A DNA stretch of 64,000 nt from Zopfochytrium polystomum (lineage: Eukaryota; Chytridiomycota; Chytridiomycetes; Chytridiales; Chytridiaceae): contig JAIVFJ010000244.1 in the NCBI GenBank assembly GCA_025765615.1, positions 26,417-90,416 of the forward strand, read 5' to 3'. Positions 34,204 through 64,000 of this stretch are shown here, piece after piece. The stretch's first letter is position 1. Every line of letters starts with the position of its first letter. Below the pieces are notes generated by a model. The model was not told the origin of the DNA. It made no database searches and worked only from the letters and a program-made list of their open reading frames with translations. The position numbers and the translations under genes are program-made.

Positions 34204-35481
34204 CTACAGCTCCGTGACTGAGGGGATTTGCATAGTATCAGAGGAAGCAAAGAAGAGAAGCTGCCGATTAGCCTGGATCCAACGAGAGAGATTCGCCATC
34301 CATTGTGCTGGGTCGCCGCCAGCAGTGACAGGGACAAGGTGACTGTAGCGATTCGCCATAGAAGCAGTGCGCCAGTTGCCCCGACTCATGACGTCGTGAA
34401 GCTGGTCTGGGGCCATGCGAGACGAGATGGCGTTCCCCACCCGAAAGCCATAGACTGTCACTGTGCGGCCCAAAATCTGCTGGATGGAGCGGTTGACAGT
34501 TGGGATTGCAAGGGGGGCCGTAGAAAACGCGGTGTCTGTGTGATTAAGAAATAGCTTGGGCTGGGCCATGACGTCCAGACCGGCTGCTGCTGAGGCCTCC
34601 CTAAGACGTGAAAGTGCTCGGACAAAGCAGAGGCGCGGATCCTCTGGTGAAGCAAGGATAGCCACATATTCAGCTGCGCCCTTGGATGTAGTCTTGCCCG
34701 CAAAGAAACCCAGGAGGACGCCGTCATAGTTTGGGAGGTGCCAGACAGCTGTGGGCATAAGCTGGACAATATCCCCCCCGCGACCACCAGTGAGGCCACA
34801 AAGCAGGGTGAATGCATACCAAGTGCAGAGGCGGAGCTGAGAACGGAGCTGAGTGACATGAGACGAACGAATAGTGGTGGCTGTCTGAGAGGAGGCCCAC
34901 TGACAGAGAACCTGTCGCAGGTCATCTGCGAACGCAGGCGTTGCTTGGAGTGGGGTCACTTGGGCCGACGATGCCAAGGATGTCATCCATTCAACATAGG
35001 ACGAGACCAGAAAGGAGTCAGCTGGATTCCCCCTTGGATTGTTGGGAGACCAGGGTTGATCAGAGCCCAGCTGAACAAATGTTTGCCGGAGGTGGCTTAC
35101 AATGGTGGACAGGGAGGAAGGGGCTGCGTGGAGAGAGCAGAGTGTGGGATCAGCTGGGCCTGCCCGATCATTGCGGTGAGGGCAGCTGGAGAAGGAAGGG
35201 CAGGTGGAACCATCACATGAGTACCCCACCAGCTGACGTTTGCCTGGAGTTGCATGGCCTTTGTGGGGGCAGGAACTGGTGTGAAACTGAGTGGTGCCGG
35301 ACTGATCTTTTGAGATGAGGAAGTCCACTACAAGGGTGGGAGTTGTGCCAGAAATGGGAATGCCCCGGATTGACAGGAAGTGGGCCAAAGCGTCTCGTAC
35401 GGCATCCTTGGGGAGTTGGCGCGGCCGTGAGCGGAGGAACTCATGAAAGAGCTGGCGACGGGCAGCAATGTATGGGTTCAA
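34204..35481 (-). CDS. tyrosine recombinase of the YR retrotransposon
   Basis: A 425-residue frame. The C-terminal half has the tyrosine recombinase fold: LCGLTGGRGGDIVQL holds the first catalytic Arg, GKTTSKGAAEY a candidate Lys strand, VYGFRVGNAISSRM the second Arg box with Tyr where His is usual, and GNWRTASMANRYSHL ends with the candidate nucleophilic Tyr. It would join circular cDNA to the target. The N-terminal third carries a Cys/His cluster (SSCPHKGH, SCDGSTCPSFSSCPHR) that could bind zinc. Last of the three genes; starts about 100 bases after the RT frame ends. Confidence 0.9.
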   Translation of the reverse strand: MNPYIAARRQLFHEFLRSRPRQLPKDAVRDALAHFLSIRGIPISGTTPTLVVDFLISKDQSGTTQFHTSSCPHKGHATPGKRQLVGYSCDGSTCPSFSSCPHRNDRAGPADPTLCSLHAAPSSLSTIVSHLRQTFVQLGSDQPWSPNNPRGNPADSFLVSSYVEWMTSLASSAQVTPLQATPAFADDLRQVLCQWASSQTATTIRSSHVTQLRSQLRLCTWYAFTLLCGLTGGRGGDIVQLMPTAVWHLPNYDGVLLGFFAGKTTSKGAAEYVAILASPEDPRLCFVRALSRLREASAAAGLDVMAQPKLFLNHTDTAFSTAPLAIPTVNRSIQQILGRTVTVYGFRVGNAISSRMAPDQLHDVMSRGNWRTASMANRYSHLVPVTAGGDPAQWMANLSRWIQANRQLLFFASSDTMQIPSVTEL

Positions 35482-35583
35482 TGAGTCGGCCTTGAGTGCT
35501 GGTGCGCAGGGCCTGGCAGATGGAGCGTACCCACACCGGGGGCAATAACACTAGTGAGAAAGGTTGCAAGTTTATTGGATGGG

Positions 35584-37890
35584 TCAGCCATTGAATGAGA
35601 AGGCCATCAGTGGGTAAGGGAGGGGGAGGGGGCACACAAGCTTAAGAGCCTTATGATATCCGAGAACCAAAGGCGGATCACCTGGGGAGTACAGGAGCCT
35701 CACACGAGAGGCCCGAGACTGGATAAATGGAAGAAGGGGATGGGCCGAGAGAGGCGCAATGAGGGTAAAGCAAACATGAAGATCTGTAAGAAAAGAGAAG
35801 ACAGCCGCAATGAGAGCAAAGGGAGGGTAGACATAGACATTATGTTGCTCCAACGGAGGGCTGGGACGCCAAGTGAAGAAATTGACCAAGGAAGGGGGGC
35901 GGCCTGGGATGAGGTAGCGAGTGAAATAGAAGGGGCAGTGAGAATTAAGTGGTGAGGCCATGGCATCCATTGTGAATGGTCCGAACTGGGCATTCAACAT
36001 CGCAAAGGTGACTGAGGGGAGGCGAAAGTCGTTGCCTGAGTCTTCTCGAGAGATTCTGTCTGCGATGGTGTTTTCCACGCCTGGGACATGGTGGAAGCGA
36101 AGGAGGACATTGTGCAAACGAGCAAGGCGCCAAATGCGCTGTAGGGCGCTGCTAATGAGGGGCTGCCGAGAGGCGCCGTGTTGGAGCGCCCCCAAGACCC
36201 CTGAATTGTCCACACCAAGTGCCACAACGCTGAAAGGCGGAGGGTTGAGCGACGACACCAAGTCTGAGGATGCATCTGGTAGCTCCACATCCAACCATGA
36301 GTGGGATACAAGGGGCAGGAGAGCTTCCAAGGTGCGGGCGGCCGCCTCTGCCTCTCGAACATTGATTGACGTCTGTGAGCTTGCCAGGAATGTTGCTTCA
36401 AATTCGTCACCGACATGAACCTCTGCGGTGACGCGCTGGCTGGCAAAGAGTATTCCCCCATAGCGGCGGTCGCTTGCGTCGGAGTGAATGACAGCGCGAG
36501 TGTGCATCTGGTGTAGCCATGGGCAGACTAGTCCAGGCTGAATAAGAGTGCGCCATTCTGAGAGCTCTGCCAGAGCCCCGTCTGTGAGGAGGAGTGTTGA
36601 GCCTCCGTTCCGGCGGTGGGTGGAAATGCAGCCGTACATGTGGCGGGTAAACGTGAGGCCGCCTTGAATTATGAGGGAGAAGTTGGCGCATTTGCCAACA
36701 AAACTTTCGACTGTAGCTGCGCAGATAGGCTGGCTGGTGGAGGCTGGGAGCCAGATAGCCTCCAAAAGCGTCTGAAACTTGATGCCCTTCTCCAACGGGA
36801 TGCTGAAGGTCCGATTGCCAAAATCAGAGACAAACCCCAGGTACACCAGAGCAGACAGCATCTCCAGCTGGGACTTTGAAATGCTTATGAAATAGCCGCA
36901 ATTGATAAATAGCAAGCATACGATACAAATAGACGTCTCCGCTTGCACTGGGGGTGGCGCTTGTGCCACTACAGAGTCCGAGGGCCAGGCAAGACGACGT
37001 TGAAAGATGGCGTCGTCCAAATACATAGCAGATGGGATGTGTGAATGGCGAAGAAATGCAACTAGTGAGTCTGAGAACATTTGAAAGACGTAAGGGCATG
37101 GGGAGCCACCAAAAATGAGGCAGAGGGCCTCAAAGTAGTATTCAATCCCATTCAGCCGTCCCCTTGTGCCGAAATAAGTGTAGCTGTTTGGGGCCAAGGG
37201 AATGTTGAAGTAGCCAGCCTTGAAATCGATGCTAGCCGCAGAAGTTCCCAGCCAACCCGTAAGAGTTGTGATTGTGTCAAGGGAAAAGGAAGGTGGTGAG
37301 AACCAAAGGTTGAGAAAGGTGCAATCGTCGAACTTCCGAGGCTTGTTGGGCTCGATCCCTGTGGGGCTGACAATATGTGGTGGGTGGGGGCAGTTGGCCA
37401 CTGGGCCGACGATACGGCGTGCGCCAGAGCGGACCTCGTCCTCAATTGTCGAGGCCATCCAAACGGCGAATGGGCCAGCCTTGGGGTGCGTACCTGGTGG
37501 AAGTGGGTAATTGCGAAAGACGCGGTGTGGTGGAGAGGGTGCGTTGTAGGAGCGGCCTTGGAAAATGCCCTGGAATGGACGGAACATGCGCGTTACATCG
37601 ACCCCGTTGGAGAGCCAGTCCCGAACCATCGTCGCTCGCCAAGGCGGGGAATAGCAGAGAATCTTGTCCCAGAACGAAAGGCGATTAGAGTTAACGCAGC
37701 ATGCTGTAAAGTGGCGGTCGTCTGGAAAGGGAAGCTTGGAGATGCGAGCGGTGCAGTGGCCCTCAAGTAGGCTGTCAAACAGGGTTTCCAGCCCCGAGCG
37801 ATTTGGGGGGTGGCAGGCAATCTCCGGAAAGGTTGCGCCATAGTTCTGGTTCTGCGTGCGAGGACATTGAGAAGGCGCAGAGGATGTCAC
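35584..37890 (-). CDS. reverse transcriptase-RNase H of the YR retrotransposon
   Basis: A 768-residue uninterrupted frame. RT blocks: RKFDDCTFLN, SIDFKAGYFNIPLAP, YFEALCLIFGGSPCPYVFQ, and the active site SAMYLDDAIF (YLDD box). RNase H follows: IHSDASDRRYGGILF (first Asp), VALGVDNSGVLGALQHG (third Asp region) and HHVPGVENTIADRISRE. The order RT-RH without protease or DDE integrase is typical of DIRS-like elements. No frameshift is needed. Confidence 0.93.
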   Translation of the reverse strand: MTSSAPSQCPRTQNQNYGATFPEIACHPPNRSGLETLFDSLLEGHCTARISKLPFPDDRHFTACCVNSNRLSFWDKILCYSPPWRATMVRDWLSNGVDVTRMFRPFQGIFQGRSYNAPSPPHRVFRNYPLPPGTHPKAGPFAVWMASTIEDEVRSGARRIVGPVANCPHPPHIVSPTGIEPNKPRKFDDCTFLNLWFSPPSFSLDTITTLTGWLGTSAASIDFKAGYFNIPLAPNSYTYFGTRGRLNGIEYYFEALCLIFGGSPCPYVFQMFSDSLVAFLRHSHIPSAMYLDDAIFQRRLAWPSDSVVAQAPPPVQAETSICIVCLLFINCGYFISISKSQLEMLSALVYLGFVSDFGNRTFSIPLEKGIKFQTLLEAIWLPASTSQPICAATVESFVGKCANFSLIIQGGLTFTRHMYGCISTHRRNGGSTLLLTDGALAELSEWRTLIQPGLVCPWLHQMHTRAVIHSDASDRRYGGILFASQRVTAEVHVGDEFEATFLASSQTSINVREAEAAARTLEALLPLVSHSWLDVELPDASSDLVSSLNPPPFSVVALGVDNSGVLGALQHGASRQPLISSALQRIWRLARLHNVLLRFHHVPGVENTIADRISREDSGNDFRLPSVTFAMLNAQFGPFTMDAMASPLNSHCPFYFTRYLIPGRPPSLVNFFTWRPSPPLEQHNVYVYPPFALIAAVFSFLTDLHVCFTLIAPLSAHPLLPFIQSRASRVRLLYSPGDPPLVLGYHKALKLVCPLPLPYPLMAFSFNG

Positions 37891-38001
37891 GCTGACTGAG
37901 GGCAGTCTGGAAAATGGTGAACGGCGATTGCAAGAAATGTATTTGGACCCGTGCGATTGACAAGAAAAGCAGAGAAGAAGGAAGGAGCGGAAAAAAGTGG
38001 T

Positions 38002-52740: not shown

Positions 52741-53835
52741 TGTGAGACTGTGCTCTCTAAATCTCCTCACCCTGGGCTGGAGGTGGAAATAGAGCAATGG
52801 CCTAAATACCAATCCTATCTAATGAAAAGGGGCAAAAGAAGGTGTCTAGGGGTCACCAGACAGGAAAATGTATTTGGAGTCTACTAAAGCCCTTCATCAA
52901 ACACAAAAGAAACTCTTTAAACACAAAAAAGAGCAGTTATCACACATCTAAAAGGGAAACATAAGAAAAGTGTGACAAAGGTGGCACAATCACAAAAGAA
53001 AGTGCAAAATGCCTCTGGTCCAAGACACAGAGAAACCCCAATAGCAAAAGCCAAAGGGACCGAATCACTCGGTAAGGAATGAGACTTAGGGCAACAAAGG
53101 GGGCGCCTAAGGCAGCACCAACCAATCTGTGCCAGCTCCTTCCCAAGGCAGAAGCCAAGGGGGAAGGCAAGAGAGTGGGGAGGAAAGTGGCCAGGTCCCA
53201 ACCTGTTGGAGCCACCACCTTGGAGCACCAGCTCCCTCTCTGCCAAAGACAAGCCCTAAGTTGGAGGGGGTTGGACACAAAGGGCAAACACAAGGAACAA
53301 TTAGTGTGCAGAGATGCCTGTTGGATCAAACCAGAACTGTTTTCCACTTAACAGAACCAGACACATCTTGTCTCACTCCCAAGAGAGGTTCCAACTCAAT
53401 CCAAGGAGGGGGCACACAGGGTGGGAGACAGTGGGACTCTTCTTGCTTCACCCTACTAGGACACAGACATCTGCCTCACCAGGCCAGAGGAATCCCCTAT
53501 CTTAGAAGCAAGGAAGGTTAAAACCCACTCCCACACACAAGTGTGACACCATGACATCACAGGCATTAATCTGAGAGAAAGAGGGTCTGAACCCAGTGAA
53601 GACCAGGCCCACCAGAGGCCACAGGAGCCAACAACCAGGGAGATGGGGGCATACCTGAGAGACCATTTCTGCAGCAGTACCTGACCAGCCAGCTCATTCA
53701 TATCACCTTGAGAGACCTGGATTTGACTAGATGTATTGACAGGAACCTAGAGGCACCACCACAGATTTACCCTCTATCCTTCCATCACCAAGTGGCTCCT
53801 ACCCAGTCCAACCCAAGCAGCATGCAGAATGGTGA

Positions 53836-53905
53836 GGTGCACTGGGGATCGAACCCAGCACACTGCCATGATGGCCAAGAGGACTCCAACCTCCTGTCAC
53901 ACACC
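53836..53905 (-). other. tRNA-like segment inside LTR 1 (perfect T-arm)
   Basis: 70 nt on the minus strand. Acceptor-like arms GGTGTGT and GTGCACC pair with wobbles, D-like arm AGGA/TCCT, and T-arm CTGGG-TTCGATC-CCCAG is perfect with a B-box-like core. The anticodon arm is replaced by a palindrome GCCAT/ATGGC. The same layout recurs in LTR 2 at about 60061-60131 with changed bases, so it is an element feature. Confidence 0.45.
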
Positions 53906-54565
53906 AGGGGACTGCCACCCCCAGCTCATACACACAGTCAGGAAGAAAAGGGCAGGCAAGGGACTTCAGGTACAGTTCTCACAGTCAACAAGAAGGGGGG
54001 GCAGCAGTTTAAATAGGAGAGGGTTGGAATCACAGGGAGGAGAGGAAAAAGGAGGGAAAACACATACAAAACAACAAAACAATAAATAAAACAGTAAAAA
54101 ACAGAAGGGATGGGTGATTCACCAAATGGGGCTGAGCCATCAACAAAGAGAGACAGCTCAGAGAATCATGGAGCCATTTCTTGGCAGACAGCCACCAGAG
54201 CAGAGTGGAGGGGGGGGTGGAGGAACTGGCAAGAAATGATTGGTGCAGACAAGAAGACACTCACCACAGCCACAGAAAGAAAGGAAGACACACAAAGAGA
54301 GACAGTAAACAAACAACTAAATAAAAGATAAAACAAGAAAAAGAGCCAAAACAAAGGAAAATACTAATTGGAAAAATAAGTAAAAATCATCAACAGAAAG
54401 AGAAAGAAAAGCCCTGTCTTCTCATACCACTCATATGAGGCATTACATCATGGTAGCTGGGCATCTGGACTTTGCACTTCTCCCACAGAAGTGGTTCAGT
54501 CCTTAGTCATTCCAAAAGTGAGGGGTTATTAGCTGGACATGATGGACTTTGCAGCCCAACAGTCT

Positions 54566-54630
54566 GCATGTCTCGAACTTGGCACCTTCCCAATTGAAGG
54601 GAGCGCTCTAACCACTGAGCAAGGAAGCCC
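54566..54630 (-). other. tRNA-like segment inside LTR 1 (A and B box motifs)
   Basis: Minus strand reads CTTGCTCAGTGGTTAGAGCG (a good Pol III A box) followed 30 bases later by AGTTCGAGACA (B-box-like). A hairpin TCCC-TTCAATT-GGGA would expose CAA at the anticodon position. The acceptor arms do not pair, so this is not a functional tRNA. LTR 2 has the same module at 60844-60908. Confidence 0.5.
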
Positions 54631-55007
54631 TATGCCAGCAGTTGAGCAGACACTGAGTCACTCGGTCTGCAGCCATTGTACAGAATAATAATAATAATAA
54701 TGGCACAAATAATAATAGTGACAGGTGACGCAGGCGCGACAACAAGTGTCAGTCGGTGGCTTATGTGGACAACCAATAATAATAAAATAATAATATATAC
54801 AGCAGAGTCCAAGCCGAATGCGTGTATAACGTGCTTCGAGACGGGTGGATAATCCTCACAATTATCAGTGAAAAAGTGGGTATACACTCTTTTATTTGAG
54901 GTCACAGGCTTGACGGCCTGTCGTCCTCACAGTACCTCTTTTTTATTCTCGCAGCCATAGATGCGACAAAATAAAGGTGTGTGCAAACGTGTTTGCAGGT
55001 CCAAGGG

Positions 55008-56252
55008 TCACTTGGTTTTTTGCAGGCGGGCGCTTCGTCGCGTCCCAGGTGCAGGAGGTGGGATTGGTGTGGCGGGCTTGGTGGAGCTCACCAGTGGGGC
55101 AGGAGTCGCTGCAGGTGCAGGCTCTTTGCCTTTGGTGGTCGAGGCACGTGTGCGCTTCGGTGGTTGTTTTGCAAGGAATCCCTCGCGTTTCTTGAACTCA
55201 TCTGGGTCGTTGTCTTTCACGAGAGCCCAGTAATCATGGATAGCTTTCGGGTGTAAGTCTTCCTCAAGCTGGTTCCAATCGTGTTTGGAGGAATATCCGA
55301 GCCACTTTGTCAGATATATGTACTTCTCACCATCAAAGGTGTGGGATTTGATTCGCTCGATTTGATATTCAACATCGGCAGGGTCTTCTTCATCCTCTTC
55401 AGGCTCAAAGTATCGCCTAACAAACTCAGGATGAATTCCAGGAGCCATTGTGGTTTTGGAAGACGGTTGGCGATGACGCTTCTTAGCGGTACGCCATTGT
55501 TCAAGTTCTTCATCATAAGTTACACCAGCAAGCTCTGCAGCTTCTTCAGCAGAGTCAGTGGGAGCGCGTTCTGTGTAAGGTCGCAGTCGTGAGACATGCA
55601 CAGTCCTGGTAACAATCTGGTTTCCAGGGAATGCTTCAACAATCGTACATTGAGCTTCGGAGTCCTTGCCAGTTATCGCAATGACTCGCACAGGGCCAAC
55701 CCAACGGAACATGAGCGAGCGGTTCTTGTCATTAAGTTTGCCAGGGTTATCAAGAGGGACAGAAAGCCATGCTCTTTGTCCAAGTTGAATTTTATGCGCC
55801 TCTTTATCCTTATCAAGGGAGACTTGATGCAAAAGGTTTTGGTGGTCCTTTGCACGTGTCATGACAATCTTCTGTGCAGCAGCAAGTTTGTCAACAACTT
55901 CAGCCACATAAGGCTCCGTCAGAATGAGTTCTGAATTCATCGATTCTTCTGGGTCTGTGGAAGGGAGTTCAAACAGGAGCGGCGCAGAGGTTCCAGCCCA
56001 AAGTGGGAGAGAGGGCGCTAGTGTCGCCAGCAAGGGCGGCTTGAACAGGTTAAGGGTGACTTGGTTTCCTGTTTTGTCTGCATAAACATATGAAATCTCT
56101 CCATTTCTGGACAGAACAGTGAGTCCGCGAGTGTGCTCACAGGCTTGAGCTGGTTTAAACAAGTGCTCAGGACAGATGAGGTTGCGGGGCCCGTACACGT
56201 AACAGGCAGAACGGTCGGTAAAAACTTGTGACGCAACCAAAGCTGTTGTCAT
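55008..56252 (-). CDS. integrase C-terminal part and chromodomain, Ty3 copy 1
   Basis: The frame reads MTTALVASQVFTDRSACYVY, a linker, QRAWLSVPLDNPGKLNDKNR (GPY/F-like region with RWVGPVRVIAITG), ARTVHVSRLRPYTE-type end of the integrase barrel, then the chromodomain EYQIERIKSHTFDGEKYIYL with TKWLGYSSKHDWNQLEEDLH and HDYWALVKDN. The aromatic cage positions (Tyr, Trp, Tyr/Trp) appear kept. Chromodomains of this class steer integration to heterochromatin marked by histone methylation. The tail is Arg/Pro/Thr-rich. Confidence 0.9.
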   Translation of the reverse strand: MTTALVASQVFTDRSACYVYGPRNLICPEHLFKPAQACEHTRGLTVLSRNGEISYVYADKTGNQVTLNLFKPPLLATLAPSLPLWAGTSAPLLFELPSTDPEESMNSELILTEPYVAEVVDKLAAAQKIVMTRAKDHQNLLHQVSLDKDKEAHKIQLGQRAWLSVPLDNPGKLNDKNRSLMFRWVGPVRVIAITGKDSEAQCTIVEAFPGNQIVTRTVHVSRLRPYTERAPTDSAEEAAELAGVTYDEELEQWRTAKKRHRQPSSKTTMAPGIHPEFVRRYFEPEEDEEDPADVEYQIERIKSHTFDGEKYIYLTKWLGYSSKHDWNQLEEDLHPKAIHDYWALVKDNDPDEFKKREGFLAKQPPKRTRASTTKGKEPAPAATPAPLVSSTKPATPIPPPAPGTRRSARLQKTK

Positions 56253-56390
56253 TCCACCAGGGTTCAGAGAACTTCGGAGGAAGGGGGGAACTTTAGATGT
56301 TCAGGTCGTCGACCTGCAATCGCAGGAGGTCGTTCATGAAAGATGTAAAGCACATCAATGGAGTATCTGAAGATAAACTCGCTGAGCACT

Positions 56391-57600
56391 TCATGAATAG
56401 GATATTCTGTTGGGAAGGGCCAGAGTTTCATTGGCAGATACTGTCGCAGTGTGAGTCTTGGATTGGTTGTTCTCAAAAACACAATCCGGAGTTGTGGGGG
56501 AAGGAGGCACTGGATCTTTGGAAAAGAGGGGTAGTGCTTTCTTCGGGTACACAGCCTTTGTTGTAAGCGTCTCAAGTTCATCAAGAATGGGGCTCTGAGG
56601 CTCGCAATCGAGACTTAGGGCAGGAAACATGTCATCATCCAACAACAAAGTTTGCGTGTTGGGCTCTTCATCCTCGTCATCAGAGGGGTAAAGAGCTTTT
56701 TCCTCTTCACTTAGAGGGTCTTCTCTGTCAATTCCAGAGAACATATCAATAGGCAGTCGGCAATCGCGTCCATGCATCAGGAAAAACGGGGTTTCTCCAG
56801 TCAGCGGGTGAACGTGCGTTCTGTACGCAAACAGAATGTATGGGAGTACAGAAGGCCAGTCGTCGTGAGTTGTCTGGTCAATGAAAGACCTAATCATAGT
56901 CTTCAAACTCTTAATGGAGCGTTCTACAGCACCGTTTGCTCGAGGCCACCGTGGCGACGAGAAGGTTTTCTTGGTTCCAAGTGCTTTGCACAGAGCAGCA
57001 AACAATTCACTAGAGAAGGGCTGTCCTCTGTCAGAGTGAAGGAACACAGGAACTCCATGTCTGCAGAACACTTGTTCTACTAAAGAGCGTGCAGCAGTTT
57101 CTGCGGAGATGTCAGTGACGGGGATTGCTTCAATCCAGCGGGTGAAGTAATCCATCACAACCATAATGTAGTGGTAGCCTTCAGGAGTCTTTTTGAAGGG
57201 TCCTGCAAAGTCAACAGCCACTCGTTCCCAGGGATACATACCAATGGGGACAGGGTGCAGAACTCCAGGACGGGACGGCACAGGTTTGCTTTTCTGACAA
57301 GTGTCGCAACTCGCAATATGGTTGCGAAGGTCTCTACCCATTGTTGGCCAGTAGAACCGTTCAGCTAGGTTATCGAACACTTTTCTGGCACCAAGGTGTC
57401 CGGAAAGGAGGTCGTCATGGACAGTTTAAGGACATTTCTCCTCAAATTGTCTGGGATGCATACAGCAAGTCGTAGTGGGGCTCTCTTCATCATGAAAGAG
57501 TAGGAGTCTCTCACAGCGTGGAGCACTCCGTGTCGTATCACCATCATAGCTGCGCGTGTAGGAGTCATAGTACGACAGGTAACGCCTTCAGGAGAGTGCC
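56391..57600 (-). CDS. DDE integrase, Ty3 copy 1
   Basis: Head: VIRHGVLHAVRDSYSF, then after a one-base shift near 57375 FDNLAERFYWPTMGRDLRNH and the CDTCQKSKP knuckle. Core: VDFAGPFKKTPEGYHYIMVV (first Asp), VFLHSDRGQPFSSELF (second Asp), RWPRANGAVERSIKSLK (Glu), and AYRTHVHPLTGETPFFLMHG. All three catalytic acids are present. The frame is open from 57380 to 56391; a frameshift near 56400 separates it from the C-terminal part. Confidence 0.9.
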
Positions 57601-57859
57601 ATCTCTCCTAAAACGAAGGATAGGTCCAAAGTAAGGGGTCTTTGTTTTGAAGATAACTCAGTGCGCGTGGGTTATCTAAAATCTGAACCTCAGATGGGAA
57701 GCTCTCAAGTGCAGCATTTGTGTCGACAGCAGGCGTGCTATCCTCATAGGTACTACAGTGGTCGTATCGAGTGGTGAAACTGCACCGGCAATTTCTTGCT
57801 CCGTTGGAGCAGCAGGGACAAGATCTCCAAGGTCTGTGAGCAGTTCAATACGATAATGG

Positions 57860-59019
57860 TCACTTATGGCAAGGCCATCAAACGAGGGGTGTTCTGTGTG
57901 AATTTGGACACTGTACTGTGAGGGGTCAATATCGTTACCTCACAAGGAAGTAGTCTACTCTCAGCAGAGGGATCCATTCGCCGGAGCACGAGGACTTCAT
58001 GGTCCAAGTCAGTCCATGGGAAGAAGGGAAAGTGTGTCGGAATGCGTCGACATAGCCAGATGCTAAGATCTGTCAACCACTGTCTCTCACTCTCTAAGAG
58101 GCCAGGGAAGGTCGCATGCTCTCTCTTCAGGCGGAGGCGAAGGGAGTGGTCAACGTCTAAGTCAGTATGCGCGATGTTCATATCTCCAGCAACAATGACT
58201 ATAAATCCTTGTGTACGGAGGGCTGAACAGTTTGCAGGAATGTCTTCAAGGAATTCATCTTGTAAGGTTGTCGGGAACCAGTTTCATCAGCGAAGCTACT
58301 GGGAGTGTAGACATTCAGGATTGCAAAAGGTCCGACAAGTAGAACAACAACACGTCCTTCTTGGTGTGTTGAGGGTCTCCCAAAAAGGTGAATTCTCTGC
58401 CGTTCAGCTCAGAACAGTAGAAGGTTGCAACGCCGTTATTCCCAGTTCGAGGATCACAAAGTAAACACTTCCATCCTTCAATCTGGCATAACTCATCAAC
58501 AAGTTTCTGGCGTTTTACACCAAGACGCGTCTCTTGCAGACAACAATACAAGGAGGTTGGGAATTGGAGGAAGTCCTCAAAATCGCTTAGCTGGTCGGTT
58601 TGTTGTGCAAAGTCGACACCAGATTTGTGAGCGACCCTAAGCCAGGAGTACAAACCATTAACATTCCAGGAAGAGATGTTAAAGGTAGGAGTCCATTTAG
58701 GTGTTTGTACACTTCTACAACAGCAGCTCACGGCTGTCATATAAGATGGTGGCGAAGTATATCGATCACAGGGTCAAAGAGGGATACTTCACGCAGTGGT
58801 TGGTCTGCATTTTCAGATTCCAACCGTTGTTCTCAGAGTCAGAATCCTCGGAGTACAGTCTATTGATTTCGTATCCAAAATCTTCATCAGTAGCATCAGC
58901 TACCTTTTTTTGCTGCTGTCTCCGCCTGATGTTGTCTCATCAGGGGAGGCTGCAGGTTTGGTGGGAGACATCTCTGTCTGTGTGGCTTCATCAGTGAAAA
59001 CGAGGCGCTTTCCTTTCAT
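57860..59019 (-). CDS. ExoIII/Apn2-like endonuclease (EEP) domain in the Ty3 element
   Basis: ATG at 59019 overlaps the RNase H stop. MKGKRLVFTDEATQTEM and an acidic linker (SEDSDSENNG) lead to the nuclease: FNISSWNVNGLYSWLR (Asn), CCLQETRLG (catalytic Glu), GNNGVATFY, AILNVYTPSS, IVIVAGDMNIAHTDLDVDH (Asp-x-Asn pair), SERQWLTDLSIWL, FFPWTDLDHEVLVLRR (Asp before the last strand), and GLAISDHYRIELL (the Ser-Asp-His catalytic His). This is the complete motif series of ExoIII/APE1/Apn2 nucleases; GDMNIAH is cellular AP-endonuclease-like. Frame breaks near 58905, 58770, 58315, 58180 and 57940 prevent translation as it stands. The sequence continues without a recognisable gap into the integrase head. 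Confidence 0.8.
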
Positions 59020-60060
59020 TGCGCAGGTCCAATAAGAACACGTGAAAGGGCGTCAGCAACAACTGTGAGACTGTGCTCTCTAACTCCTCACCTAGGGCTA
59101 TAGGTGGAAACTAGAGCATGGACCTAAATACCAATCCTGACTAATGAAAAGGGGCAAAAGGAGGGTGTCTAGGGGCACTAGACAGGAAAGTGTATTTGGA
59201 GTCTTAAAAAGCCCAAGAAAAACACAAATAAATCTCTAACACAAAAGAGGGGTTTCTCACACCAAAGCATGAAACAGACACAATCACAAAGAAAGCATAA
59301 TCCTCTGGTGCAAGACACAGAATGGTTTCATCTGGGGCACAAGGCCAAAGCCAAGTTAGACCAGAGACAGAACCGACTTGATCGGTAAGACCGACTGAAT
59401 CGGTAAGGGGAGTGGCAAGCCACTACAACCCATCAAAAGAAACAACAAAAGAAATAAACAACAAGTCAAACCCTGAGTTGGAGGGGGTTGGAGAGACAAA
59501 GGGCAGACACAAGGAACAGTTAGTGTGCAGAGGTGCCTGTTGAACCAAATCAGAACTGTTTTCCACTTAACAGAACCAGACACAACTTGTCTCACTCCAA
59601 GGAGAGTGTTCCAACTCAATCCAAGGAAGAGGGTGCAACCAGGGTGGGAGACAGTGGGACTCTTCTTGCTCCATCCTACCAGGAGACAGACCTCTGCCTC
59701 ACCAGGCGAGAGAGAATAACCTGTCTTAGAAGCAAGGAAGGTCAATACCCACTCCCACACACAAGGAAGACACCAAAGACAACCACAGGTATTAGCATGA
59801 AAGGAAGAGGGTCTGAACCCAGTGAACCAGGCCCACCAAAGGCCAAAGGAACCATCACCAGGGACAGGGAGGAATACCAGAGAGACCATACCACCACATA
59901 ATACCTGACCAGCCAACTCATTCATATCACCTTGAGAGACCTGGATTTGAAGTGATGTATTGACAGGAACCGGCGAGGCACTACCACAGTTTTACCCTCC
60001 CACCGTCCATCATCAAGTAGCTCCTACCCCAGACCAGCCTAAACAGTATGTGCAGAATGG

Positions 60061-60131
60061 TGAGGTGCACTGGGACTTGAACCCAGCACACTGCCATAAA
60101 TGGCCAAGAGAACCAATTCTCCTGTCACACA
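60061..60131 (-). other. tRNA-like segment inside LTR 2 (perfect T-arm)
   Basis: Counterpart of 53836-53905. The T-arm is CTGGG-TTCAAGT-CCCAG, acceptor-like arms GGTGTGT/GTGCACC are the same, and the palindrome in the anticodon position is GCCAT-TT-ATGGC. The stems are kept although loop bases differ from copy 1. Confidence 0.45.
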
Positions 60132-60843
60132 CCAGGGGACTGCCACCCCCAGCTCATACACACAGTCAGAGAAGGAATAAGGGCAGGCAGAAGACTTCAG
60201 GTACAGGTTCTAAGGGGCAACAAGAATGGGGGGTGGGCTGCTTAAATAGGAGAGGGTTGGAATCAGCAGGGTGAAGGAAGAAGGAAGGGAAAAGAGGGGA
60301 AAACATATACAAAAGAACAAAACAATAAATAAAACAACAAAGAAGAGAGAGGAGGAGTGAGTCACCAAACAATGGGGCTGAGCCATCAAACAAGGAAGAC
60401 AGCTCAGAAAATCATGGAGCATTTCTTGGCATCAGCTGCCAAGAAAGATGGAGGAGATGGAGAGAGCTGGTTGGTGCAAAGAGGAAGACAGTCACTCACA
60501 GCCACAAAAGAAAAGAGAGACACACACAGAGACAATAAACAAACAAATAAATAAAAGATAAAACAGTAAAAACAGGAAAAACAGGATAAACTACTAATTG
60601 AAAAAATAAGTAAAAATCATCAATAAAGAAAGGAGAAAAAACCCTATGATCTCATACCCTTTCATGAGGCCTTTCATCATGGTAGCTTATGTAGCAGCTC
60701 TGTGTTAGCTCTGTGTACACCTGGACTCTGTACTTCTACCCACTTAAGCACATCATCCTAATCCATTTCCAAAAGTGAGGGGGGCAAGGCTTAGTCATTG
60801 TGCAGAACTTAGCATTTCTGCATCATTCAGTCAGTGACTGCCA

Positions 60844-60908
60844 GCATGTCTCGAACTTAGCACCTTTCCCATTGAAGGGAGCGCTCTACACCACTGAGCT
60901 AGAGGGCC
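60844..60908 (-). other. tRNA-like segment inside LTR 2 (A and B box motifs)
   Basis: Counterpart of 54566-54630. Minus strand reads TAGCTCAGTGGTGTAGAGCG (A box) and AAGTTCGAGACATGC (B-box-like). Confidence 0.5.
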
Positions 60909-61267
60909 TCTGGCCAGTAGTGCAGAGCAGCCTGAGCCATTCGGCCTGCAACTTAGTGCGTAATAATAACATGAATAATATACATGGCCGCGGCTAAGAG
61001 ACAGTCCAAATCTCAGTGGTTCGGCTTGCAGGGACAATAATAACCCATGAAAATAATAAGAAATGGGGTCCAGCCGTGTTACGTCACTTTGTGAAACGTT
61101 GTTTGGTCAAGTCAAATTGATAATCCTCACAAGTTATCAGTTAAAAAAGCGGGGTATACTCTTTTTATTTGAGGTCGCAGGCTCAACAGCCTGTCGTCCT
61201 CACAGTACCTCTTTTTTATTCTCGCAGCCATAGATGCGACAAATTAAAATAAGGTGGGTCCAAGGCG

Positions 61268-62195
61268 TCACTTGGATTTTTGCAATCGGAGGCTACGTCG
61301 CGTTCCGGTTGCAGGTGGTGGGTTTACTGGGATGAGCTTCTTTGTGGTGCTCATTGGTTTTACAGGAGTTTCTGCACGTGTTGCAGGACTCGTGTTTTTG
61401 GGACCTGGGGCGTTGGAGCGCTTGGGTCGGTTTGAAATGAATTCTGTGTGTTGCTGGAACTCATCTGGATTGTTCTCTTTTACAAGAGCCCAGTAGTCTT
61501 GAATAGCTTTGGGGTGTAAGTCTTCTTCAAGTTGGTTCCAGTCATGCTTGGAAGAGTATCCTAACCATTTGGTTAGATACATATATTTTTCGCCATCAAA
61601 TGTGTGAGATTTAATGCGCTCGATCTCGTATTCGATATCGGCAGGGTCTTCTTCATCATCTTCAGGCTCAAAGTATCGTCTGACAAATTCAGGGTGGATG
61701 CCAGGAGCCATTGTGGTTTTGAAGAGGGTTGGCGGGTAGCGTTTCTTAGCGGTTTGCCATTTTTCAAGTTCTTCGTCATATGTTGCACCAGCGAGGTCTG
61801 CGGCTTCTTCTGCGGAGTCAGCAGGAGCTGTAAGGTCGCAGTCGTGAAACATGCACAGTTCTGGTCACAATCTGATTTCCAGGGAATGCTTCAACAATTG
61901 TGTATTGCGCTTCAGAGTCTTTGCCAGTGATTGCAATGACTTGTACAGGGCCAACCCAACGGAAGAGGAGTGAGCGGTTCTTATCGTTAAGTTTGCCGGG
62001 ATTATCAAGAGGAACAGAGAGCCAAGCCCTCTGTCCGAGTTGAATTTTGTGAGCTTCTTTATCTTTTTCAAGGGAAGCAAGGTGCAAAAGCTCTTGATTC
62101 TGCTTTGCTCGTGTCATAACAATGTTCTGCGCAGCAGTAAGCTTGTCAATAACTTCAGCTACGTAGGGTTCTGTCAGAATGAGTTCTGAACTCAT
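61268..62195 (-). CDS. integrase C-terminal part and chromodomain, Ty3 copy 2
   Basis: MSSELILTEPYVAEVIDKLT, QRAWLSVPLDNPGKLNDKNR and RWVGPVQVIAITG (to about 61818), then after a shift ADSAEEAADLAGATYDEELE and the chromodomain YEIERIKSHTFDGEKYMYLT with KWLGYSSKHDWNQLEEDLH, ending in a basic Pro/Thr tail and RRSLRLQKSK. The same domain order as copy 1. Confidence 0.88.
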
Positions 62196-62280
62196 TGTTT
62201 CAGATGGGTCTGTTGAAGGGAGCTCAAACAGAAGTGGTGCCGAAGCGCCAGCCCACAGCGGGAGAGCTGGTGCAAGCGTT

Positions 62281-63878
62281 TCAAGTGAAGGCGGCGGTGA
62301 ACAGGTTTAGGGTAATTTGGTGTCCTGTTTTGTTGGCAAAAAGGTACACAAGTTCTCCGTTTCTTGAAAGAACAGTGAGCCCGCGTTTGAATTCAGTCAC
62401 AGCAACTGATTTCAGCAAGTGTTCAGGACAAATGAGGTGTCGAGGCCCGTACACATAACAGGCAGAACGATCAGTAAAAACCTGCGATGCGGCCAGAGAC
62501 GTTGTCATTCCACCAGGATTCAGTGAGTTTCGCAGAAAAGTGGGGAATTTCAAGTGTTCAGGTCGGCGTCCTGGAATTGCAGGTGGACGCTCATGAAAGA
62601 TGTAAAGAACATCAATGGAGTATCTGGAGATAAACTCGCTTAGCACTTCGTGAACAGGGTACTCTGTGGGGAAGGGCCAGAGTTTCATCGGCAAATACTG
62701 TCGGAAGGTGAGCCTAGGATTTGTTGTTCGCATGAACACAATCCTAAGTTGCGGTGAAGAAGGCAGGGGCTCGCTTGAAAAGAGAGGGAGTGCTTTCTTT
62801 GAGTACACTGCTGTCGTTGTCAGTGTTTCAGGTGTGTTAACTACAGGAGGTTTAAATTCAAAGCTCTGAGCAAGAAAACACATTGTCACCCAGCAGCAAT
62901 GTTGTACTATCAGGTTCGGCATCTTCTTCTTCAGGAAGAAGTGCTTTTTCCTCTGTGCTGAGAGGATCATCTCTGTCAACTCCAGAGAACATATCAATGG
63001 GGAGTCGGCAGTCGCGTCCATGCATCAGGAAAAACGGAGTTTCTCCAGTCAGTGGGTGGACGTGAGTTCTGTACGCAAAAAGAGCATACGGAAGCACAGT
63101 GGGCCAGTCGTCATGGAGATGACTGATCAATGAAAGACCGTAAGGTTGCCTTCAGTGTTTTGATGTAACGTTCTACAGCACCGTTTGCTCGTGGCCAGCG
63201 TGGTGATGAGAAGGTCTTCTTGGTTCCGAGTGCTTTACAGAGAGCAGAAAACAATTCACTGGAAAAGGGCTGTCCTCTGTCGGAGTGAAGGAACACAGGG
63301 ATTCCGTGTCTGCAAAACACTTGTTCTACAAGGGCTCGTGCAGCAGTTTCTGCGGTAATGTCTGTGACAGGGACTGCTTCAACCCAGCGGGTGAAATAAT
63401 CAATCACAACCATAATGTACTGGTAACCTTCAGTGGTCTTTTGAAGGGGCCAGCAAAGTCAACAGAAATTCGTTCCCAGGGATACATTCCAATGGGGACA
63501 GGATGCAGAACTCCGGAACGGGAGGGCGCAGGTTTACTCTTTTGGCAAGTTTCACAACTTGCAATGTGGGTTGCGGAGGTCTCTACCCATAGTCGGGCCA
63601 GTAGAAACGTTCAGCAAGGGTGTCAAACACTTTCCGAGCACCAAGGTGTCCAGAAAGGAGGTCATCGTGGACAAGTTAAGAACATTTCTCCGCAGGTTGT
63701 CAGGATGCATATGGCAAGTCTTAGTGGGGTTCTCTTCATCATGAAAGGAGTATGAATCTCTCACGGCGTGGAGAACTCCGTGTCGAATCACCATCATGGC
63801 TGCTCGTGTAGTCATGGTGCGAAGAGATACTCCGTCAGGAAGAAGCCCATCTTTCCTAAAACGAAGGATTGGTCCCAA
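62281..63878 (-). CDS. DDE integrase, Ty3 copy 2
   Basis: Head VIRHGVLHAVRDSYSF near 63780, then after shifts the core: MVVIDYFTRWVEAVPVTDIT, VFLHSDRGQPFSSELFSALC (second Asp), RWPRANGAVERYIKTLK (Glu), AYRTHVHPLTGETPFFLMHG. The first Asp lies in the segment at about 63450, after a one-base loss relative to copy 1. The downstream frame 62281-63021 holds RSACYVYGPRHLICPEHLL. Confidence 0.85.
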
Positions 63879-64000
63879 AATACTCGTCCTTGTTCTGAAG
63901 GTAGCTTAGGGCACGCGGGTTGTCAAGAACTTGTACTTCTGAGTGGAAACTCTCTAGGAGGGCTTCTGGTGTTACGACCAACTCAGGCGTAAGGAGCTGT

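What the first reader, a model, noticed from the sequence alone, without database searches (positions are those of the whole stretch)
54932..59063. Ty3-type retrotransposon encoding an ExoIII/Apn2-like endonuclease between RNase H and integrase
Seen: minus-strand VVADALSR (end of RNase H), stop overlapping ATG as ATGA, then a full set of EEP nuclease motifs (WNVNG, QETRL, NVYTPS, GDMNIAH, SDH), then an integrase with DDE residues, then a chromodomain, polypurine tract and LTR. Known: chromoviral Ty3 elements carry PR-RT-RH-INT-CHD; apurinic-type endonucleases belong to non-LTR elements, where they precede RT. An EEP nuclease in this place, of the cellular AP-endonuclease type, is not an arrangement I know. 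Inference: the nuclease is part of the element, perhaps helping integration, target nicking or repair of uracil/abasic sites in cDNA, because it overlaps the RH stop and runs into the integrase head without a foreign junction. A captured host gene or a chance insertion in this one copy are the alternatives.
Basis: partly seen in the sequence, partly recalled or inferred. Interest (0 to 1): 0.88.

Follow-up and report, generated by a model that had tools for sequence, protein, structure and literature searches.

The report
Retrotransposons carrying a DNA-repair-type nuclease
In the genome of a chytrid fungus, several families of virus-like jumping genes carry, inside the protein that copies and inserts them, an extra enzyme of the kind cells use to repair damaged DNA, and it appears to be kept intact by natural selection.

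Summary
The window's copy is a decayed, truncated fragment, but the same genome (the chytrid Zopfochytrium polystomum) holds many relatives. Of 41 merged loci of this integrase type, 36 have the nuclease, whole or in part, within 3 kb; the five others are a contig end, a Ty1/copia junction and three fragments. No clean RNase H-integrase junction without the nuclease was seen among the loci examined. Intact copies carry it in frame in single pol frames of up to 3741 codons. It is an ExoIII/APE1-class (Xth) domain, over the TIGR00633 cut-off, with the expected catalytic residues and dN/dS of 0.06-0.09. Lineage B has the same order without a detected chromodomain; its sister family C has the nuclease before RT. 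The ordinary chromovirus copy read here lacks it. Some copies are very young. Mechanism is inferred: most likely an element-encoded AP endonuclease/3'-end nuclease that keeps the cDNA free of abasic sites and blocked 3' ends before integration. Ten full-text searches, seen as listings and passages, showed no earlier description. New variant of a known kind.

The parts
52741..54931 (-). 3' LTR of copy 1 (TGTGAGGACG...GTCTCACA on the minus strand), 2191 bp
   Evidence: Matched ends in both window copies and alignment to the flanks of the C251/C117 relatives; 77% identical (1591 of 2072 aligned bases, short flanks included) to the LTR of copy 2.
54932..54944 (-). Polypurine tract AAAAAAGAGGTAC directly before the LTR
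   Evidence: Sequence read, same in copy 2; nearly the same motif before the 3' LTR of the A2 copy on C442.
55008..56300 (-). Integrase C-terminal part and chromodomain (open frame of 430 codons)
   Evidence: PF00385 E=4.2e-4, under the curated cut-off.
56391..57425 (-). Integrase: H2C2 zinc-binding domain and rve catalytic core
   Evidence: PF17921 E=4.8e-17, PF00665 E=4.6e-14.
57820..58701 (-). ExoIII/APE1-type (EEP) nuclease domain, decayed, in several frames
   Evidence: Pieces match the intact domain of L010 (rows C244); piece 58283-57864 hits PF03372 E=0.0019.
58702..59015 (-). Linker between RNase H and nuclease (decayed)
   Evidence: DNA matches to L010, L018 and L020 at 58964-59063.
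59016..59063 (-). Last codons of RNase H (VVADALSR...) up to the ATGA; the rest of RNase H and everything before it is not in the window
   Evidence: Sequence read; intact RH ends for comparison.
59064..61204 (-). LTR of copy 2, abutting copy 1 inside its RNase H: most simply a nested insertion of copy 2 into copy 1 (inference)
   Evidence: LTR ends; 59805-64000 is 97.8% identical to the C136 copy L010.
61205..64000 (-). Copy 2: polypurine tract, chromodomain and integrase part, cut by the contig end before its nuclease region
   Evidence: Open frames; contig ends at window 64000; INT match C244:89821-90309.

Best explanation
These are Ty3-type LTR retrotransposons whose pol polyprotein carries an ExoIII/APE1-class AP endonuclease as a regular part. 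Shown here: the domain is in frame in many copies, has the expected active-site residues, is under purifying selection and travels with the element. Inferred: it is made with pol, packaged with RT and integrase, and acts on the element's own cDNA, cutting at abasic sites and clearing blocked or ragged 3' ends (and perhaps RNA primer remnants), so that RT can finish the DNA and the integrase can join clean ends. Integration itself is still done by the integrase.
For: In-frame RT-RH-EEP-INT frames of 1435 to 3741 codons. 16 loci have an uninterrupted EEP match inside a frame of at least 1000 codons (my count from the 105 rows, which merge to 69 loci). EEP scores 129-143 bits against TIGR00633 (cut-off 99.05) in the uninterrupted full-length copies of families A, B and C; the LINE on C34 scores 59 (RT and RNase H on it). 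Residues WN, QE, EGR, Y, D-N, D and DH are invariant in five element copies and the host APE1 (their catalytic roles are recalled from APE1). dN/dS of EEP 0.085 (A1 pair) and 0.063 (B pair), like RH (0.101, 0.081) and INT (0.088 A1, 0.053 A2). Model pLDDT 77.6; best PDB matches are ExoIII homologues. Young copies: LTRs identical over 2886 bp in C442, 99.8-100% in the BLAST pieces of C79 and C55. 4-bp target duplications and TG...CA ends in 2 of 2 family C copies read are as integrase makes them. The class has AP-endonuclease and 3'-end-cleaning activities (established knowledge of ExoIII/APE1).
Against: No biochemistry, expression or processing data. The position next to integrase could equally mean a role in integration. 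Family C has the domain before RT, where LINEs have their target-nicking nuclease, and Pfam found H2C2 but no rve core in family C; its DDE-like residues I only read by eye. The ordinary chromovirus copy read does without the nuclease, so the need it meets is unknown. No uracil-DNA glycosylase or dUTPase domain was found in the four upstream pieces scanned. The protease call is weak (E=0.18 in A1; none in the A2 piece).
Confidence: 0.5

Rival explanations
1. The nuclease helps integration: it nicks or opens the target DNA, or processes the integration intermediate, alongside the integrase.
For: It lies between RNase H and integrase in families A and B; in family C it lies before RT, as in LINEs, where such nucleases nick the target.
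Against: Both family C copies read have 4-bp duplications and TG...CA LTR ends, as integrase alone gives; the domain scores as a repair AP endonuclease and well above the LINE nuclease on C34; ordinary chromoviruses integrate without it. Target duplications of families A and B were not tested.
Confidence: 0.2
2. The nuclease removes tRNA or polypurine primer remnants or trims cDNA 3' ends, as a second RNase H or 3'-5' exonuclease, with no role in base damage.
For: ExoIII/APE1 enzymes have 3'-5' exonuclease and RNase H-type side activities (established knowledge); the domain follows RNase H in families A and B.
Against: The element already has an RNase H domain. Nothing here separates this rival cleanly from the best explanation.
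Confidence: 0.18
3. The domain is kept as a nucleic-acid-binding or regulatory module without catalysis, as in Pseudomonas Crc, or acts on host DNA or chromatin.
For: Crc, of the same fold, is among the structural matches.
Against: The catalytic columns are invariant over families that share 25-38% identity with A1. That Crc lacks them is recalled.
Confidence: 0.07
4. A chance insertion or passenger gene in this copy.
For: The window copy alone is decayed and truncated.
Against: 36 of 41 integrase loci and 38 of 39 RH loci of this type have it; order RH-EEP-INT in 28 of 29 loci, the other a mispairing; dN/dS under 0.1.
Confidence: 0.02

Closest known systems
Chromoviruses (Ty3/gypsy, Metaviridae), e.g. 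the abundant ordinary family in this genome (L039)
   Same: LTRs, polypurine tract, RT-RH-INT order, H2C2 and rve domains, C-terminal chromodomain in family A.
   Different: I know of no chromovirus with an ExoIII-type nuclease; the ordinary copy read here, L039, goes from RH to integrase over a short linker. pol frames here reach 3741 codons.
KnitGypsy-Dnmt3 of Klebsormidium (PMC5890265, passages read)
   Same: An LTR Gypsy element with an extra enzyme in pol, key residues kept, under purifying selection (Ka/Ks < 0.2 in that paper).
   Different: There a DNA methyltransferase; here a DNA-repair nuclease.
ExoIII/APE1 (Xth) AP endonucleases
   Same: Whole domain, active-site residues, fold, score over the curated TIGR00633 cut-off.
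   Different: Embedded in a retrotransposon polyprotein; stands apart from the host's APE1 on long branches.
APE-type non-LTR retrotransposons (LINEs)
   Same: A retrotransposon with an EEP nuclease; in family C it precedes RT.
   Different: LTRs and integrase; nuclease of repair type; in families A and B it follows RNase H.
Accessory-domain LTR elements (DnaQ-like exonuclease, chromodomain, PMC6338049; aRNH and chromodomain, PMC5348765; passages read)
   Same: Domains added to pol.
   Different: The passages read do not describe an AP endonuclease in an element with integrase.

Membership tests
Ty3/gypsy LTR retrotransposon | RT, then RNase H, then DDE integrase in one pol | tested here: met
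   Pfam order in L010, L018, L011, L015, L019. In family C (L023) RT-RH-H2C2 without an rve hit.
Ty3/gypsy LTR retrotransposon | Long terminal repeats with TG...CA ends and a polypurine tract | tested here: met
   Window, C79 and C55 whole LTRs; C442 LTR start only. On C40 only a 236-bp match at 94% between the two sides held was found.
Ty3/gypsy LTR retrotransposon | Short target-site duplication of fixed length | tested here: met
   4 bp in 2 of 2 family C copies (GCGG, CCGT). Not tested for families A and B.
Ty3/gypsy LTR retrotransposon | Aspartic protease and gag zinc knuckle | tested here: inconclusive
   Asp_protease_2 E=1.9e-4 in family C, 0.18 in A1; zf-CCHC E=8.9e-4 in A1; all under curated cut-offs; nothing in the A2 and B pieces.
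Chromovirus | Chromodomain after integrase | tested here: met
   Family A only: PF00385 over cut-off in L013 and L015, under it in L010, L018 and the window. Not found in L019 or L023.
Chromovirus | RT groups with chromovirus RTs | tested here: inconclusive
   Family A does not group with the ordinary chromovirus of this genome; the deep forks are open.
ExoIII/APE1 (Xth) AP endonuclease | Score over the curated family cut-off | tested here: met
   TIGR00633, 129-143 bits against 99.05 in uninterrupted full-length copies of families A, B, C.
ExoIII/APE1 (Xth) AP endonuclease | Catalytic residues (QE, Y, D-N, D, DH) | tested here: met
   Invariant in 5 element copies plus host APE1 and in 7 element copies; roles recalled from APE1.
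ExoIII/APE1 (Xth) AP endonuclease | Fold | tested here: met
   Model pLDDT 77.6; best Foldseek match 5j8n, E=1e-16, TM 0.67/0.76, rmsd 4.7.
ExoIII/APE1 (Xth) AP endonuclease | Cuts abasic DNA | not testable with these tools
   Needs biochemistry.
APE-type non-LTR retrotransposon | Nuclease before RT, no LTR and no integrase | tested here: not met
   LTRs and integrase domains present; only family C has the nuclease before RT.

The most novel reading that the evidence does not exclude
A clade of LTR retrotransposons has become self-sufficient for base-excision-type repair or end processing of its cDNA, or couples a repair-type AP endonuclease to integrase-driven insertion, and has kept this enzyme long enough for it to form its own protein clade and to sit at two different places in pol (after RNase H, or before RT).
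Probability: 0.5. Interest if true: 0.88.

Novelty: new variant of a known kind. Interest (0 to 1): 0.76.

Why it matters
Retroelements pick up extra domains rarely, and each one points at a problem of their life cycle. A conserved AP endonuclease in elements that already have an integrase suggests that damaged or blocked cDNA, or some step of integration, limits them. It offers a natural test of whether abasic sites restrict reverse transcription in fungi, and it breaks the textbook split in which AP-type nucleases belong to LINEs and integrases to LTR elements.

Tried and rejected
Relatives elsewhere: the protein search with the family A nuclease region gave none at E <= 0.001 among 7993 scored candidates. 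The search with family C pol (EEP to INT) gave 83 proteins among 7996 scored, 0 of 83 with PF03372 in the precomputed Pfam list and 0 of 83 with my own EEP profile at E <= 10. A scan of IMG/VR (11 pattern matches) and one of GTDB genomes (153) confirmed none. These searches have limited reach (shared words, length limits, two peptides each), and no other chytrid genome could be searched, so restriction to this species is not shown.

Origin: a recent capture of the host's own APE1 was considered and is not supported: host APE1 groups with a Cladochytrium protein. With three LINE rows and C66 in, the two element clades stood apart with open forks; with those four rows dropped they joined at 100/97, with a long-branch warning. 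One RT clade for A, B and C was not rejected (p-AU 0.074; a first run, did not finish), though the free tree does not show it and is 25 log units better. One or two acquisitions stays open.

dN/dS could not be given for the A2 pair in RH and EEP, because synonymous sites are saturated. The Rfam 18S search did not complete. The count rests on rows copied by hand; searches scored 150 of 400 and 150 of 764 candidates.

Rejected: ATGA coupling as a translation signal (intact copies are one frame); chance insertion.
Full report
What was checked. The window is the end of contig C244 of an 80.2-Mb, 761-contig genome. The host APE1 protein spliced from contig C103 (225,962 bases) is 100% identical to a protein of Zopfochytrium polystomum on a contig of the same length, so the organism is this chytrid (Chytridiomycota, Chytridiales).

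The window copy. On the minus strand, 59063-52741 is the 3' part of an LTR retrotransposon: the last codons of RNase H, a linker, a broken EEP nuclease, integrase (H2C2 and rve), chromodomain, polypurine tract and LTR. Only one of three nuclease pieces searched apart hits PF03372 (E=0.0019), but pieces match the intact domain of a relative at 67-76% identity. RNase H is cut exactly where the LTR of the second copy ends (59064). Copy 2 (59805-64000) is 97.8% identical to the C136 copy, whereas copy 1 is closer to the C251/C117 subfamily (about 82%, against 76% to C136). The simplest reading is that copy 2 landed inside the RNase H of copy 1.

The element families. In the same genome, relatives read RT-RH-EEP-H2C2-rve-chromodomain in one frame: L010 (1669 codons, beginning within RT), L018 (2868 codons within the stretch fetched; 3604 in all) and the A2 family L011 and L015 (frames of 3741 and 3723 codons; the chromodomain lies beyond the stretch scanned in L011) and L013 (frame of 1663, beginning within RT). 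Lineage B, L019, has RT-RH-EEP-H2C2-rve without a detected chromodomain; rve there is under its cut-off (28.2 of 32.6 bits). L021 has RT-RH-EEP in one frame and rve in another. Family C (L023) has an aspartic protease match in ORF1 and EEP-RT-RH-H2C2 in ORF2, so there the nuclease precedes RT; no rve hit was reported. L022 has frames with the same beginnings. The family names A1, A2, B and C are only for this report.

Copy accounting. A search with the A1 nuclease gave 105 matches of 112 scored, which merge to 69 loci. 48 integrase-head rows of this type (of 150 listed) merge to 41 loci; 36 have a nuclease match, whole or in part, within 3 kb on the same strand. The five others are copy 2 of the window (contig end), C85 (a Ty1/copia-type frame, by my reading, stands directly upstream) and C19, C22 and C26 (fragments without nuclease or adjoining RNase H upstream; in C22 an RH fragment lies nearby on the other strand). 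42 of the 47 RH-tail rows merge to 39 loci; 38 have the nuclease, and the other, C272, runs from RH into the first residues of the nuclease and stops there. Of 29 loci with all three parts, 28 have the order RH-EEP-INT; the remaining one, on C42, was paired with the RH of a neighbouring copy. At C158 the nuclease match stops at residue 73 and the integrase match starts at residue 111 of its query, an internal deletion. 22 nuclease loci had neither partner in these two lists: seven are B or C type, and I did not look at the neighbours of the other 15. Rows left out before the count: those from C3 onwards (identity 41% or less, ordinary chromovirus type) and the five weakest (C8:452618, C337 three times, C74).

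The internal control. The genome is rich in ordinary Ty3 elements: Integrase_H2C2 gave 777 candidates, of which 150 were scored, most in frames like that of one family with about 1255 codons. The one copy read, L039, goes from RNase H (VADALSRR) to the integrase over a short linker, and ends with a chromodomain-like stretch by eye; neither PF03372 nor TIGR00633 has a row on its contig C317. L040, a second locus of this type, was fetched but not examined.

What the nuclease is. Uninterrupted full-length copies of families A, B and C score 129-143 bits against TIGR00633 (xth; cut-off 99.05), above the two exons of the host's own APE1 taken singly (109 and 98 bits); the LINE on C34 scores 59, and other full-length rows of that score class, not examined, reach 63. 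In the PDB by sequence the best hits are ExoIII homologues: 5j8n at E=2.2e-26 for A1 and 1.1e-23 for B, Neisseria 2jc5 at 1.6e-20 for A2, with human APE1 near 1e-17, 1e-10 and 1e-18 (in the order A1, A2, B). An AlphaFold2 model from seven element copies has pLDDT 77.6 and its best Foldseek matches are ExoIII of Methanosarcina mazei and Mth0212, with APE1 further down (rmsd 4.5-5.4). Columns WN, QE, EGR, Y, D-N, D and DH are invariant in five element copies and the host APE1. That these include the catalytic positions is recalled knowledge of APE1.

Selection and age. dN/dS of the nuclease is 0.085 (A1 pair) and 0.063 (B pair), beside 0.101 and 0.081 for RNase H, 0.088 (A1) and 0.053 (A2) for integrase; the A2 pair is saturated at synonymous sites in RH and EEP. 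LTRs of the C442 copy are identical over 2886 bp (its contig begins inside the LTR), those of C117 over the 1394 bp held on both sides; the LTRs of C79 and C55, about 1976 bp, are 99.8-100% identical in each BLAST piece. On C40 only a 236-bp match at 94% joins the two sides held, so no LTR pair was established there. The two family C copies have 4-bp target duplications, GCGG and CCGT, TG...CA ends and, one base after the 5' LTR of C79, a TGG-initial stretch like a primer-binding site (read by eye).

History. The RT tree (81 rows) joins A1 with A2 (100/100) and B with C (100/99) but leaves their deeper places open. The nuclease tree has the same two pairs, so nuclease and RT have travelled together within each lineage, while between B and C the position in pol has changed. 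Whether A and B/C share one acquisition is open: the nuclease rows form one clade when three LINE rows and C66 are dropped (100/97, long-branch warning), not with them in, and one RT clade is not rejected (p-AU 0.074). The host APE1 is not the near source; a host APN2-type gene also exists (C228).

How it most likely works (inference). Pol is made as one protein and, as usual for such elements, cut by its protease. The nuclease, of a class that cuts at abasic sites and clears blocked 3' ends, would act on the cDNA in the particle or pre-integration complex. Integration remains the work of the integrase, as the 4-bp duplications of family C suggest. A role in target nicking or primer removal is not excluded.

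Literature. Ten full-text searches were run (one of them, only for the organism). The listings were capped in three (20 of 78, 25 of 44 and 30 of 546 papers). No listed title or abstract start, and no passage read, describes an ExoIII/APE-type nuclease in an LTR element with integrase. I read passages only of PMC6338049, PMC3248453, PMC9289625, PMC10799480, PMC9926174, PMC5890265, PMC4112212 and PMC5348765; all other papers I saw only as listings. PMC3248453 mentions complex fungal LTR elements with many additional domains in a supplementary figure that I could not see. The nearest published case seen is the capture of Dnmt3 by a Gypsy element of Klebsormidium (PMC5890265). Subscription papers, preprint servers and Repbase were not searched, so prior description cannot be ruled out.

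Noticed in passing
window 53834-53922 and 54550-54635 (-), 60825-60915 (-); L018:103-191; L020:9731-9819: The LTRs of family A1 contain tRNA-like stretches: ARAGORN calls tRNA-Ser in the window's LTR and tRNA-Phe in L018 and L020, and by eye there are A- and B-box-like sequences. They may be Pol III promoter-like parts or captured SINEs.
   Followed up: partly
L029:2399-2470 (C442:20399-20470): A predicted tRNA-Glu ends 87 bp before the start of the 5' LTR of the young A2 copy on C442: a possible hint of insertion near tRNA genes, one case only.
   Followed up: no
window 34204-38001 (-): Two adjacent long frames: one with a weak reverse transcriptase match (PF00078 E=4.5e-5, under cut-off) and weaker methyltransferase-like matches, one with an ALOG-domain match (PF04852 E=5.7e-6); by look a DIRS- or Crypton-like element (my reading).
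   Followed up: partly
L028:4218-6047 (-) (C66): A frame with 2'-5' RNA ligase superfamily and EEP domains in one protein (PF13563, PF03372).
   Followed up: no
L021:4408-8512 (-) (C20): A family B copy whose integrase core lies in a separate frame from RT-RH-EEP.
   Followed up: no
L041 (C85:60200-63300): A Ty1/copia-type frame (by eye) next to a family A integrase fragment.
   Followed up: partly
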